Shown: positions 6,870 through 58,450 of the stretch, in pieces | How the letters are laid out: the number at the start of each line of letters is the position of its first letter | Position numbering within the stretch: the first letter of the stretch is position 1 | NCBI RefSeq assembly: GCF_037893015.1 | Contig: NC_133658.1 | Span: forward strand, 257,465,856 to 257,529,855 | Source of the DNA: Macrotis lagotis | Lineage: Eukaryota > Chordata > Mammalia > Peramelemorphia > Peramelidae | Direction: 5' to 3' | DNA length: 64,000 nucleotides | Notes under the pieces: model-generated | What the model saw: the letters and a program-made list of their open reading frames with translations, nothing else | The model's database searches: none | What the model was told of the DNA's origin: nothing | Translations under genes and position numbers: made by a program

Positions 6870-8539
<1,670 letters not shown>

Positions 8540-10800: not shown

Positions 10801-11447
10801 ATATCATCTGTCATTATTGCTGTTATTCTCAAATAGAGATTTTTATATTTTTTTCTGTCATAGATCTCATTGGCAATCTGGTAAAACCTGTGGACCCTTA
10901 ACTATATAATTTTCTTTTCCTTTATTGAAGAAAATATCATATTTTAGTTCAATATTAGTCAAAATAAAAAAGCAGTTTTTCTACAACCAAATCTATTCAT
11001 GGAAATCTTATTTTTCAAGAACCAACCCCTATTTTAGTAGATCTTTAGCTATTTGTTATTCAGATTTATCACAGGAAGATAGGGTGGATCCTATATTAAA
11101 AGATGATGAAGTTGATTTTAGATAGGGAGCAAGTGCCTTCAAGCAACAGACAGACATATTGGCATATGGTAGTCTAGTAAAGCCAACCAAAGTCTAATGT
11201 AATTCTAATATCAGTTTGCCAGTGGATATAATTTCATCAGTGTAGATATCCCCTCCACTAGTGCAGGTCACAACCCTTCCACATTTCTTCATACTGCACA
11301 ATTTTTCTCCATAAATTCCATCCCTCCCATAAATAAATCCTCCATAGACCAAGTCCTTCTTTTTGGTCTTTTAATATTTTGTGGATATCAATGCTAAAGG
11401 ATATTTTGGAAGGGAAAATTTACTGTGTAACTTAGGATAAGTGATTT

Positions 11448-11892
11448 ATCCTCCCTCCCTTCTTTTCTTCCTCCCCCTCTTCCTCCCTCTCTCCCTCCCT
11501 TCCTCTCTTTTTCTCCTTTCCTCCCTTTCTTCTTCTCTCCTTTCTCCCTCCCTTCCCCCCTTCCTTCCCTCCCTTCCCCTCTTCCTTTCTTTCCTTCTTC
11601 CCTTCCTTCCTCCCTTCTTCCCCCTTTTCTTCTTCCCTTCCTCCCTCTCTTCTTCCTTCCTTTCCTTTCCTTCCTTCCTTCCTTCTTTCCTTCCTTCCTT
11701 CCTTCCTTCTTTCCTCCCTCCCTCCTTCCCTCCTTCCCTCCTTTTCTTCTTCCCTTCCTCCCTCTCTCCCTTTCTTCTTCCCTTCCTCCCTCTCTTCTCT
11801 CCTCCCTCCCTCCCTCCTTCCCTCCTTCTTCCCTTCCACCCTCCCTTTCTCCCCCTTCTTTTCCTCCCCCCATTTTCCTCTCCCCTTCACTT
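11448..11892. repeat. Polypyrimidine/polypurine low-complexity tract (CCTT-rich)
   Basis: About 440 bases on the plus strand consist almost solely of C and T in shifting cctt, ccct and ttctt units. Long apparent ORFs here on both strands are products of the composition. Such homopurine-homopyrimidine DNA can form triplex structures. Confidence 0.95.
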
Positions 11893-12024
11893 CCCTTTCT
11901 CAATTGCCTTTTCTCTAAATATAGGTATACAATTTGGGGATACAATTTGTTAGCATAAAGTTGGATTCAGGCTAGATTAATCACTCCAGAAAGAAAGGTA
12001 TTGGGACACTTCAAAAATTGGGTA

Positions 12025-14432: not shown

Positions 14433-14512
14433 CCAGAGTGTCCCCAGAGTCTTAGTGTAGTTTTAAGTGGTCAAAGCTTAAAACTGCACTAAGACTTTTG
14501 GAATACCTTGTC
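14433..14512. mobile_element. Mariner-type palindromic MITE
   Basis: The roughly 80-bp element is almost entirely an inverted repeat. gtcttagtgtagttttaag (14449-14467) pairs with cttaaaactgcactaagac across a 9-base spacer, with one mismatch, and the pairing extends more weakly outward (gtccccagagtc against gacttttggaat). It resembles short mariner-derived MITEs with gtcccaaaagtctta-type ends. Confidence 0.55.
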
Positions 14513-18649: not shown

Positions 18650-18790
18650 AAGTATTTATTAAACATTTACTGATGCCAGACATTGTGGGATACAAATGCA
18701 AGCCAAAAAAAGTGATCTTGCCTTGGAGGAATTGATGTTCCAATGGGAGGAGACAATACATAAAAGGAAGCTGAAAAGAGAAGTAGGGGA
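18650..18790 (-). mobile_element. L2 3' fragment
   Basis: acaagtatttattaaacatttactgatgccagacattgtgggatacaaatgcaag...gccttggaggaattgatgttccaatggg is antisense L2 3' sequence. Confidence 0.75.
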
Positions 18791-18851
18791 GGGAAGTTAC
18801 TACCTGTAGGGGCAGGATGTATAGTCAAGAGAACTATACAGGTCAGTGTGG

Positions 18852-18937
18852 ATCATTAGATGAAACTTTAGTGGTTTATTTCTTCCCCTCAGTAACCTAA
18901 GGGGAAGAAATAAACCACTAAAGTTTCATCTAATGAT
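18852..18937. repeat. Perfect inverted repeat, 38-bp arms, 10-base loop
   Basis: The left arm (18852-18889, starting atcattagatgaaactttag) and right arm (18900-18937, ending aaagtttcatctaatgat) are exact reverse complements over all 38 positions. They are separated only by cagtaaccta. The match stops abruptly at both outer ends. No inverted-terminus transposon that I know is this shape, so a fold-back template switch is the likeliest origin; an assembly artefact must be kept in mind. Confidence 0.95.
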
Positions 18938-18989
18938 GAAGGTGATTTCACTATTGTGAACACCTCCAATAGCACTTTACATACATTAT

Positions 18990-19155
18990 CAGCACCATGG
19001 TATAGTTGAAAAATTTTCTGATTTGAAGTCAGAGGACCTGTGTTAAAACCTTGGGTCTGCTTACTTATTCTCCTCTGGGATTTAGTTTCTCATCTGGCAA
19101 GTGAAGGAAGGATGATCAGATGACTTTCTAGCTCTTAAATCAGTGATTCTGTGAT
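18990..19155 (+). mobile_element. MIR SINE
   Basis: ccatggtatagttgaaaaa...gatttgaagtcagaggacctgtgtt...tagtttctcatctggcaagtgaagg...cagtgattctgtg is a near-complete plus-strand MIR. Confidence 0.65.
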
Positions 19156-26300: not shown

Positions 26301-26974
26301 TTTTCACATTGATAATTCATTCAACAAATTCAATATTTGAAACTCCCCCTTTTTCATTCAGTATTTGAAAAGACAAATTAGGAAGAGGAAACACTGATCT
26401 AATAGGAAGTGAGAGAACACAAAGTAGGTTTCAACATATCTGACTTTTCCAATTTTTTTAAAATGGTATCATGGCAAGGTGCCACAAGAGAAATTGACCC
26501 TATTTCTATTTCATAATAGGCTTTATGCTGCCATCGGTCTTGGGTTGGGATCACAAGCTAAGTGATTATGTTTTTAATCATACACACAGAGTCCTCAGTA
26601 TGTGTTTTGGCTTCAGTTATAAAAAGATGGATGGCATTTTATGACTTCAGTAATTTAGAGCTTGGATAGGTCTATAACTCTTTTAGAAATTACATAAGAG
26701 CCTGAGAAAATCATTGGTTTGTATGTGTGTAGTTGTGAGCCTTGCCCTGCAGGACTATGCTGTATGCTTATTGCTGTTAGTTTATCAAATAGTTTAAGTG
26801 AACCAACCTCAGTTCCGATTTTATTTTTCTTTGCCCTGAAAAGTAGAATTTTTTTTGAGGGGGGGAAATTGAATCACCTTTTTAGTTCTACCTATCTGAT
26901 CATCCATATCATATTATCTGTAGACATATATACATAAATATGTATATATTTACATGTACCTTACTTGTTTTATT

Positions 26975-27126
26975 TTTTTTTTAGGGTTTTGCAAGGCAAA
27001 CGGGGTTAAGTGGCTTGCCCAAGGCCACATGGCTAGGTAATTATTAAGTGTCTGAGACCGGATTTGAACCCAGGTACTCCTGACTCCAGGGCTGGTGCTT
27101 TATCCACTACGCCACCTAGCCGCCCC
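26975..27126 (-). mobile_element. Australian-marsupial-type tRNA SINE, copy 2
   Basis: This is a full-length antisense copy from poly-T through gcaaggcaaacggggttaag to gccacctagccgcccc. The antisense B box reads ggatttgaaccc. It is bounded by perfect 13-bp target-site duplications, tacttgttttatt at 26962-26974 and 27127-27139, so its ends are exact and the insertion is fairly recent. Confidence 0.9.
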
Positions 27127-42890: not shown

Positions 42891-43654
42891 ATATGTTTAT
42901 GCAATAGTATATCTCAATTTCTAGGCCACTGGTATCAGACAAATAACCCTCAGAACAAGATTTAACATATTTAAGAAAATAAAAATACAATAGAGCATAG
43001 TGTTAATATATGATTTTCCAAGGCAAAATATCCTTATGTATCCCCTTTCTATTAATGCTTGATATGACTGATTTAGACAGTTTCCTAATATTGTAAATAG
43101 CTAAAAAGGTGCTAAGTTGCATTGATAGAGGCACTTTCCTCACCCAGGGATTCTTGTTATCAACACAAACACAGGTTGATTATCTTAAAGTCTTGTAAGT
43201 AGAAAGGGAGTTGGGAAAGTGATAGTGGTGCTGCTGGGGAATATATTCAGGGTGAATGACAAGATGGAATTCATTCTATTCCTAAATTCTATGGTATTAC
43301 AATAGCATTTCAGGTCCTGGCTTTTTTAAGATGGTATAAAAATTTATTGGGAAGATTATAGATTCTTATAGAAATTAGCTGAAACTCTGTGGTTTTTGTG
43401 ATATCTTTCACTTTTGAGATTCAGGGATTATTAGCTATGTGATCAAAGACAAATCAAAATTTTTGAATTCCTTTTCTATGATAGATACACTACTTACCTC
43501 ATGAAATATCTACAAAGAAATTCTTTTTAAAATACTATATACATGTGAGTTATTTTATGAACAAATATAATCAGGGAAGAACATGACAACAGTGTCTCAT
43601 GCACAACTGATGATAGATTTAAATTTCCATTGTGTTCCTCCTATGGGGAGGGCA

Positions 43655-43656
43655 TA

Positions 43657-43718
<62 letters not shown>
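43655..43718. repeat. (AT)n microsatellite
   Basis: A nearly pure at run of about 60 bases. Confidence 0.95.
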
Positions 43719-43721
<3 letters not shown>

Positions 43722-43807
43722 AGTCTTATCCTGTGGCTACATAAATGGGAGCCATTTTTACCTCTCACTGCTGTTCTATTCCTTTAATCCCCTTTGAAGA
43801 TCCAATG

Positions 43808-44042
43808 TTATTCAAGTAGGAAGGTTTAGACAATTCATCTTACCTGATAACATTGTGTATCTATTCTTTAGAAGATGGATATATGTAATAATAGTGGTTC
43901 CTAATTGTGTGCTCAATTTGTTTTGAAAATTAGATCTACAATTTTTATGCCAAATGAGGAACAACTAATTTCCTTTATTGTATAAATGTGTGGTTGAGAG
44001 GGTGGAATATCTTTGTTGAGATGTCAGTACATTGCTCATTCT

Positions 44043-44086
<44 letters not shown>

Positions 44087-44124
44087 TATATATTTGAATA
44101 AAGATATATAATATATAGAAATTG

Positions 44125-44191
<67 letters not shown>

Positions 44192-44375
44192 ATATATTCA
44201 ATGTCTAAAGGACTTAAAGACTATTGATGCTGGAAGGGACCTAGGGGATCATTAAATCCGACTCTTTATTTTAAAGAGTAAGAGTAGTATAGTGAAAAGA
44301 TCATAAATCCTGGAAGGAAAAGACCTGAATTTGGTTTTGGCTTTGACATTTATTAACTATTATATCTCAATCGTG
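43808..44375. repeat. Duplicated intronic segment, copy B, expanded by a compound microsatellite
   Basis: It is homologous to copy A throughout, except that a stretch of about 20 bases in A (between cttac and ttcaatgtc) is replaced here by about 155 bases of AT, CT and AT repeats at 44042-44197. The 3' limits of both copies lie shortly after tgacatttattaa. Confidence 0.85.
44042..44190. repeat. Compound (AT)n-(CT)n-(AT)n microsatellite
   Basis: AT run 44045-44090, an intervening AT-rich spacer, CT run about 44127-44157, then AT to 44190. Confidence 0.95.
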
Positions 44376-57540: not shown

Positions 57541-58450
57541 TATATAAAGAAATTTCCTTTACCTCCTATGACTTCACATTTCTAGTGCAGTTACTAATGT
57601 TTCCTCACAGTCATGCATATGAAGTGTGCCAGGTATGCTCAAATTCCTCCAATGTATCAACTATACTTTTCCTTTGGCAAAGATGCCTGGGATCCACAGC
57701 CTGCTGAGAATAAGGGTGCCTTTCTCTGTTCCTTCCTATTTTCTTTCCTTTGCTGCCCCACTTGCTAGCTTTCTGCTACTTCAGCATGAAAGAAAAGAGT
57801 TTTGGTGACTGAGTCATGCTACAATCTAGAACCTCTCAATAGCCCTTACCAGGACTACATTCAGTTGCTTCCTTGCTTGCTGTGATGGGGCTTCAGCTTA
57901 CAGTAGGAATCTGGTTTCTGATAGGCTCAAGTAAATCATTTGTCCTCCTTCCAGTCTCAGGAGTCTCAGCATCTTCCAGAACACTACACAGCTGACTCTG
58001 GAGTCAGGGAAAACTCAACTAGGCATTTATTTTTCCTTTGATTTTTCTGAATATTTTGTTTTTCATAGTTCAGTACTGAGTAGATGGTCTGGAGATTGAT
58101 TGCCATGGGCAAGGAAAGCAAAAAAGTTAAGCTTTAAAAATTTTAAATAATTGAATATCTGGCCACCAGCCTTTAAATTCCATCACTGACCCTTCATGGA
58201 AATTTATGGAATGAGAATATAAGGATTAAATTGTAAAGTTTTTTTTAAGCCAATATGAAGACTACAAAAGTTTTACTGTATTTACATGGTAAGAAAAGAT
58301 GTTTTGATTGAAAAGAAACCCTTTGAAAACTATAATTTTTTTTATAACATTGAGGTAAATTTTTTAAAATGAGTTAACTTTTAACTTCTTTGTTTTTTTT
58401 TTTAAATTGACCCCTTAATGTCCTTCTAGCACTACCCTTCTATCCTTTCA
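57541..58450. other. Unassigned intronic sequence
   Basis: No recognised repeats apart from poly-T runs near 58380. 57600-58080 has balanced composition and could include unique regulatory DNA. Confidence 0.3.

What the first reader, a model, noticed from the sequence alone, without database searches (positions are those of the whole stretch)
18852..18937. Perfect 38-bp inverted repeat with a 10-base loop in intron 1
Both arms match at all 38 positions, while surrounding DNA is unremarkable and the neighbouring L2 and MIR pieces are old. Perfection implies a recent event. A fold-back template switch during replication would copy the left arm in reverse. The gene-sense RNA would fold into a long perfect stem, a potential Drosha/Dicer or ADAR substrate. 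A chimeric fold-back read in the assembly would look the same.
Basis: partly seen in the sequence, partly recalled or inferred. Interest (0 to 1): 0.72.

Follow-up and report, generated by a model that had tools for sequence, protein, structure and literature searches.

The report
Young perfect DNA hairpin in intron
A short stretch of DNA inside what looks like a gene's first intron is followed almost at once by its own exact mirror copy, most likely left by a one-off copying slip during DNA replication; this is a real but known kind of mutation, with no sign yet that it does anything.

Summary
Positions 18852-18889 and 18900-18937 are exact reverse complements (38 of 38) with a 10-nt spacer; equally, they are 41-nt arms with 40 of 41 pairs and a 4-nt loop. 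Chance expectation in the window is about 2e-15. Outside TA-repeat tracts, the next perfect inverted repeat with spacer up to 100 has 14 bp. Both strands fold into one long stem. It lies 11.3 kb downstream of an exon resembling exon 1 of DOK5/DOK6 (name recalled).

Best explanation: a one-event, short-range fold-back template switch during replication, as described in great apes. Edges are sharp, no target-site duplication flanks it and no second copy lies in the window, which counts against a MADE1-like MITE, the main rival. Which arm is ancestral, its age and read support could not be tested: the own-genome search was unanswered in ten attempts, and no marsupial collection was available. No Rfam family reaches its gathering score, and the apical UGU and well-placed CNNC of pri-miRNAs are missing, so a function is unsupported. 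New member of a known kind; low to moderate interest.

The parts
18852..18889 (+). left arm, 38 bp (41 nt if extended to 18892 with one mismatch)
   Evidence: exact reverse complement of 18900-18937; 41-nt form
18890..18899 (.). spacer CAGTAACCTA; in sense RNA it folds as a C.A mismatch, two pairs and a 4-nt loop
18900..18937 (-). right arm, 38 bp (41 nt from 18897 with one mismatch)
18938..18967 (+). adjacent small imperfect hairpin, two stems of 5 bp with a 2-nt bulge; relation to the long hairpin unknown
   Evidence: RNA fold -10.7 kcal/mol, z -3.66, 0 of 200 shuffles as stable
7452..7517 (+). coding part of exon 1 of a DOK5/DOK6-like gene (name recalled), which makes the hairpin intronic and fixes the sense strand
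   Evidence: tblastn of a recalled 22-residue start, 95.5 percent identical (21 of 22), E 1.5e-11; followed by GTAAGT

Best explanation
A single short-range template-switch mutation in the germ line made the hairpin. During replication the nascent strand folded back, or the polymerase jumped locally, copied about 38-41 bases of just-made sequence in reverse, and returned to its template, leaving an exact inverted copy after a 4-10 nt loop. If the fold-back was primed within the spacer, the CT at 18897-18898 pairing with the AG at 18891-18892 gives a 4-nt loop and a 41-bp product, and a later transition at position 18890 or 18899 gives today's single mismatch. Shown: the arms, spacer, edges, single copy in the window and lack of a visible target-site duplication. 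Inferred: the event itself, its direction, its priming site and its youth. Today it is most likely a neutral, transcribed intronic stem; any processing by ADAR or Dicer would be incidental.
For: Perfect 38-bp arms with chance expectation 1.9e-15, and sharp outer edges. Outside the locus the best match of the hairpin in the window is 23 bp at 87 percent, E 0.33. No direct repeat at the edges: of the eleven lengths 2-12 compared, none matched fully, and with 12 bp of slack the best exact repeat was 5 bp, a length reached or exceeded by 1041 of 2000 random placements. Great-ape template switches often leave perfect inverted repeats (PMC7954356, passages); 1503 gold-standard events have median copied length 12 and maximum 128 (section 8 part 1), so 38-41 is long but in range. 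Template switches are reported to have made microRNA hairpins such as MIR633 in one step (PMC8794818, sections 5 and 9).
Against: No orthologous sequence was seen, so the one-arm ancestor is not shown. The copied length is well above the median of known events. A MITE with the same layout (MADE1: 37-bp arms, 6-bp middle; PMC1784062, passages) is not excluded genome-wide. Perfection could also come from repeated template switching that repairs an older palindrome.
Confidence: 0.72

Rival explanations
1. A MADE1-like miniature inverted-repeat transposable element (MITE): two terminal inverted repeats almost touching, inserted by a transposase acting in trans.
For: Layout nearly identical to MADE1: 86 bp with 38-bp arms and a 10-bp middle, against 80 bp with 37-bp arms and 6 bp. 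A TA lies at arm offset 6, so a TA duplication could hide inside the arms.
Against: No target-site duplication at the edges. If the TA at offset 6 is the target duplication, the 5 bp outside it (ATCAT/ATGAT) must be complementary by chance, about 0.0015 (from the pair probability). No second copy in the 64-kb window, although that is a weak test for a family of some thousands of copies.
Confidence: 0.13
2. An assembly or library artefact: a fold-back chimeric read or a polymerase snap-back taken into the consensus.
For: Such errors make perfect inverted copies with small loops (general knowledge); no reads could be examined.
Against: Unrelated sequence continues on both sides of the 38-bp arms; a chimeric fold-back read normally gives arms up to the read's end. 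The possible single change at 18890/18899 would suggest some age. This is inference from the sequence.
Confidence: 0.06
3. A selected RNA hairpin: a young pri-microRNA or hairpin-siRNA precursor whose stem is kept perfect by selection.
For: Gene-sense RNA folds into one stable stem: -61.0 kcal/mol for the 86 nt, z -15.88, and -69.9 with flanks, z -11.87; antisense -67.3, z -13.69. Stem length is close to that of pri-miRNAs (recalled, about 35 bp). Some microRNA families match weakly, best MIR6425 at E 3e-07.
Against: No Rfam family at gathering score in the window; all 14 matches in 18750-19050 at E up to 10 are below their gathering scores, MIR6425 at 39 of 142 bits, and reflect stem pairing more than sequence. 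No UGU in the loop; the first CNNC is 24 nt past the stem, farther than the recalled position a few nt past the stem base. PMC8794818 section 5 places bulges of microRNA stems after a perfect phase.
Confidence: 0.05
4. An old palindrome kept perfect by arm-to-arm conversion or repeated template switching.
For: PMC8794818 argues that template switching can also repair stems.
Against: The single mismatch near the loop is not repaired; no relative was available to show age either way.
Confidence: 0.04

Closest known systems
[quoted passage not shown]
   Same: perfect local inverted repeats made by a single reverse-copying event; stable secondary structure afterwards
   Different: arm of 38-41 bp against a median copied length of 12; here no ancestor sequence is available to prove the event
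MIR633 and other microRNA hairpins attributed to template switching (PMC8794818)
   Same: proposed origin of a long perfect stem in one step
   Different: those loci are annotated human microRNAs with a phylogeny; here neither is available
MADE1 MITE and the hsa-mir-548 family (PMC1784062)
   Same: almost the same layout: 37-bp arms, 6-bp middle, 80 bp in all
   Different: no visible target-site duplication here and no second copy in the window; the sequence was not compared with the MADE1 consensus by a tool

Membership tests
Template-switch hairpin | perfect inverted copy with sharp ends close to its source | tested here: met
   38 of 38 pairs, spacer 10, no continuation outside
Template-switch hairpin | ancestral state with one arm only in relatives | not testable with these tools
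   no mammalian relatives held; the genome search 'own' did not complete
MITE | target-site duplication flanking the terminal inverted repeats | tested here: not met
   eleven lengths from 2 to 12 compared, none identical; an absorbed TA at arm offset 6 remains possible but needs 5 further chance pairs
MITE | multiple dispersed copies in the genome | tested here: inconclusive
   no copy elsewhere in the 64-kb window; the genome could not be searched
microRNA gene | match to a known microRNA family | tested here: not met
   0 matches at gathering score in the window; weak matches below it
microRNA gene | small RNAs of 20-24 nt with precise ends from the arms | not testable with these tools
   no small-RNA data available
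microRNA gene | pri-miRNA sequence motifs (apical UGU, downstream CNNC; motifs recalled, found in only part of real pri-miRNAs) | tested here: not met
   loop CAGTAACCTA has no TGT; CNNC first at 24 nt after the stem

The most novel reading that the evidence does not exclude
A just-born hairpin gene: a template switch made a perfect 38-41 bp stem in the first intron of a DOK5/6-like gene, and the transcript already feeds Dicer (hairpin siRNA or proto-microRNA), caught before the bulges of a mature microRNA gene have arisen.
Probability: 0.06. Interest if true: 0.65.

Novelty: new member of a known kind. Interest (0 to 1): 0.28.

Why it matters
Template switching is a proposed one-step source of hairpin RNA genes, studied in microbes and great apes and inferred for some human microRNAs (PMC8794818, PMC7954356). 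A long, nearly undecayed example in an intron of another lineage would be a clean test case for how such stems arise, decay or become processed, if relatives confirm a one-arm ancestor. On its own it is an ordinary, probably neutral mutation scar.

Tried and rejected
Known RNA family: Rfam at gathering score gave 0 matches in the window. With E up to 10 on 18750-19050 it gave 14 matches, 12 of which overlap the hairpin at least partly; the best is MIR6425, E 3e-07 but 39 bits against a gathering score of 142. I reject these as generic long-stem matches.

Older copies or a parent repeat in the window: blastn and nhmmer with five queries (the two halves of the locus, and three joins lacking one or both arms). 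Matches with E up to 0.05 lie in the right-flank repeats only and reach neither arm; the only ones near the left arm have E 23 and 30. The left flank's best matches have E 0.025 and 0.24. So nothing tells which arm is ancestral. A 57-bp, 63 percent match of 18828-18884 to 26922-26978 (E 1.8) was inspected and rejected as AT-rich chance.

Exons: a recalled exon 3 piece gave E 0.027 at 57965-58075; I looked at the DNA and did not accept it at 32 percent identity.

Copies elsewhere: an exact 21-mer in viral contigs, 0; an exact 24-mer in genome contigs, 0. By their descriptions these hold viral and prokaryote contigs, so these nulls say little.

Papers: six answered searches. The tammar wallaby small-RNA paper PMC3576234 (passages only) has 0 occurrences of DOK5 in its main text.

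Full report
What is there. The window holds, at 18852-18937, two exact reverse-complement arms of 38 bp separated by CAGTAACCTA. The repeat finder extends them to 41 nt at 98 percent with 4 nt between. I prefer this second description, because it leaves a normal hairpin loop and one mismatch, C18890 against A18899. In gene-sense RNA that is C.A; in antisense RNA it is G.U, and the 41-bp stem is continuous. A single transition from a perfect 41-bp stem would explain it. Two of three inner pairs can also match by chance, so the extension is plausible, not shown.

Is it more than chance? At the window's composition, 1.9e-15 such arms (38 or longer, spacer up to 100) are expected. Longer imperfect inverted pairs (up to 65 nt, 73 to 98 percent) are listed, which shows 25 of 166; the other 24 shown lie in the TA-repeat tract 43654-44207. 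Among perfect arms with spacer up to 100, the next after this one are 34 and 25 bp in TA repeats and then 14 bp, the floor of that scan. Allowing mismatches, five hairpins of score 14 or more pass a simple low-complexity filter, with scores 38, 18, 17, 16 and 15; six random first-order Markov sequences of equal length gave none. Two of the five are still AT-rich. Folding gives -69.9 kcal/mol for 18832-18957 as RNA (z -11.87, 0 of 200 shuffles as stable) and -41.3 as DNA (z -12.43).

Where it is. A coding stretch for [22 protein letters not shown] lies at 7452-7517 on the + strand, followed directly by GTAAGT, a splice-donor consensus. It matches 21 of 22 residues of a DOK5/DOK6 start that I recalled; the gene name therefore rests on recall. 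Recalled exon 2 pieces found nothing better than E 0.73; a recalled exon 3 piece had one match at E 0.027 (57965-58075, 32 percent identity), which I do not accept as an exon of so conserved a gene. So the hairpin most likely lies in a long first intron, 11.3 kb inside it. The right flank, from about 18970, is an antisense MIR interrupted by a SINE-like piece that I removed by eye; it aligns with a recalled MIR consensus at score 52.5, the same whichever arm is put before it, against a maximum of 17 in 200 shuffles. The match does not reach the hairpin. In-window relatives of the right flank with E up to 0.01 are 64-80 percent identical, in keeping with old repeats. The left flank gave no clear relatives (best E 0.025; 0.24). 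That the genome is a marsupial's was not tested.

How it arose. A one-step local template switch explains perfect arms, sharp ends and closeness. In great apes, 1503 well-placed events have a median copied length of 12 and a maximum of 128 (PMC7954356, section 8 part 1), so 38-41 is long but in range, and the authors note that such events often generate perfect inverted repeats (passages). Template switching has been proposed as the origin of microRNA stems such as MIR633 (PMC8794818, sections 5 and 9). The main rival is a MITE: MADE1 has almost the same anatomy (PMC1784062, passages). Against it, no duplicated target flanks the arms at any of the eleven lengths from 2 to 12, and the best exact direct repeat with 12-bp slack is 5 bp, reached or exceeded in 1041 of 2000 random placements. 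A mariner-type TA duplication could be hidden at arm offset 6, but then five more outer pairs must be chance, about 0.0015. No other copy lies in the window, which is a weak test. Copy number in the genome would settle this; the own-genome search did not complete in ten attempts.

How old. With an assumed neutral rate of 2.2e-9 per site per year (recalled, not measured here), no difference in 76 sites gives a 95 percent upper limit of 18 million years; one change in 82 sites gives a best value of 5.5 and an upper limit of 26 million years. At 1e-9 the zero-difference limit is 39, at 3e-9 it is 13. Arm-to-arm repair would make these limits meaningless, so 'recent' is an inference.

What it does. 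Nothing is shown. A 38-bp perfect duplex in an intron could be edited by ADAR or cut by Dicer (established knowledge), but the stem matches no Rfam family at gathering score, though some microRNA models match it weakly through pairing, and it lacks an apical UGU and a CNNC at the usual distance (motifs recalled). I judge it most likely neutral.

Verdict. It is a new member of a known kind.

Noticed in passing
18938-18967: A second, small imperfect hairpin (GGTGATTTCAC / GTGAACACC) abuts the long one; RNA fold z -3.66, 0 of 200 shuffles as stable. Possibly chance or a second, older event.
   Followed up: partly
14448-14496: Imperfect hairpin with 20-nt arms (score 17, one mismatch) and a 9-nt loop, not low-complexity; may be an older, decayed event of the same kind.
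   Followed up: no
100-165: Imperfect hairpin with 21-nt arms and a 24-nt loop; it holds a perfect 14-bp inverted repeat at 107-158.
   Followed up: no
11431-11966: Long pyrimidine-rich stretch on the + strand, with several overlapping repetitive open frames.
   Followed up: no
43654-44207: Dense TA repeats with long imperfect inverted pairings up to 65 nt, a likely unstable AT-rich site.
   Followed up: no
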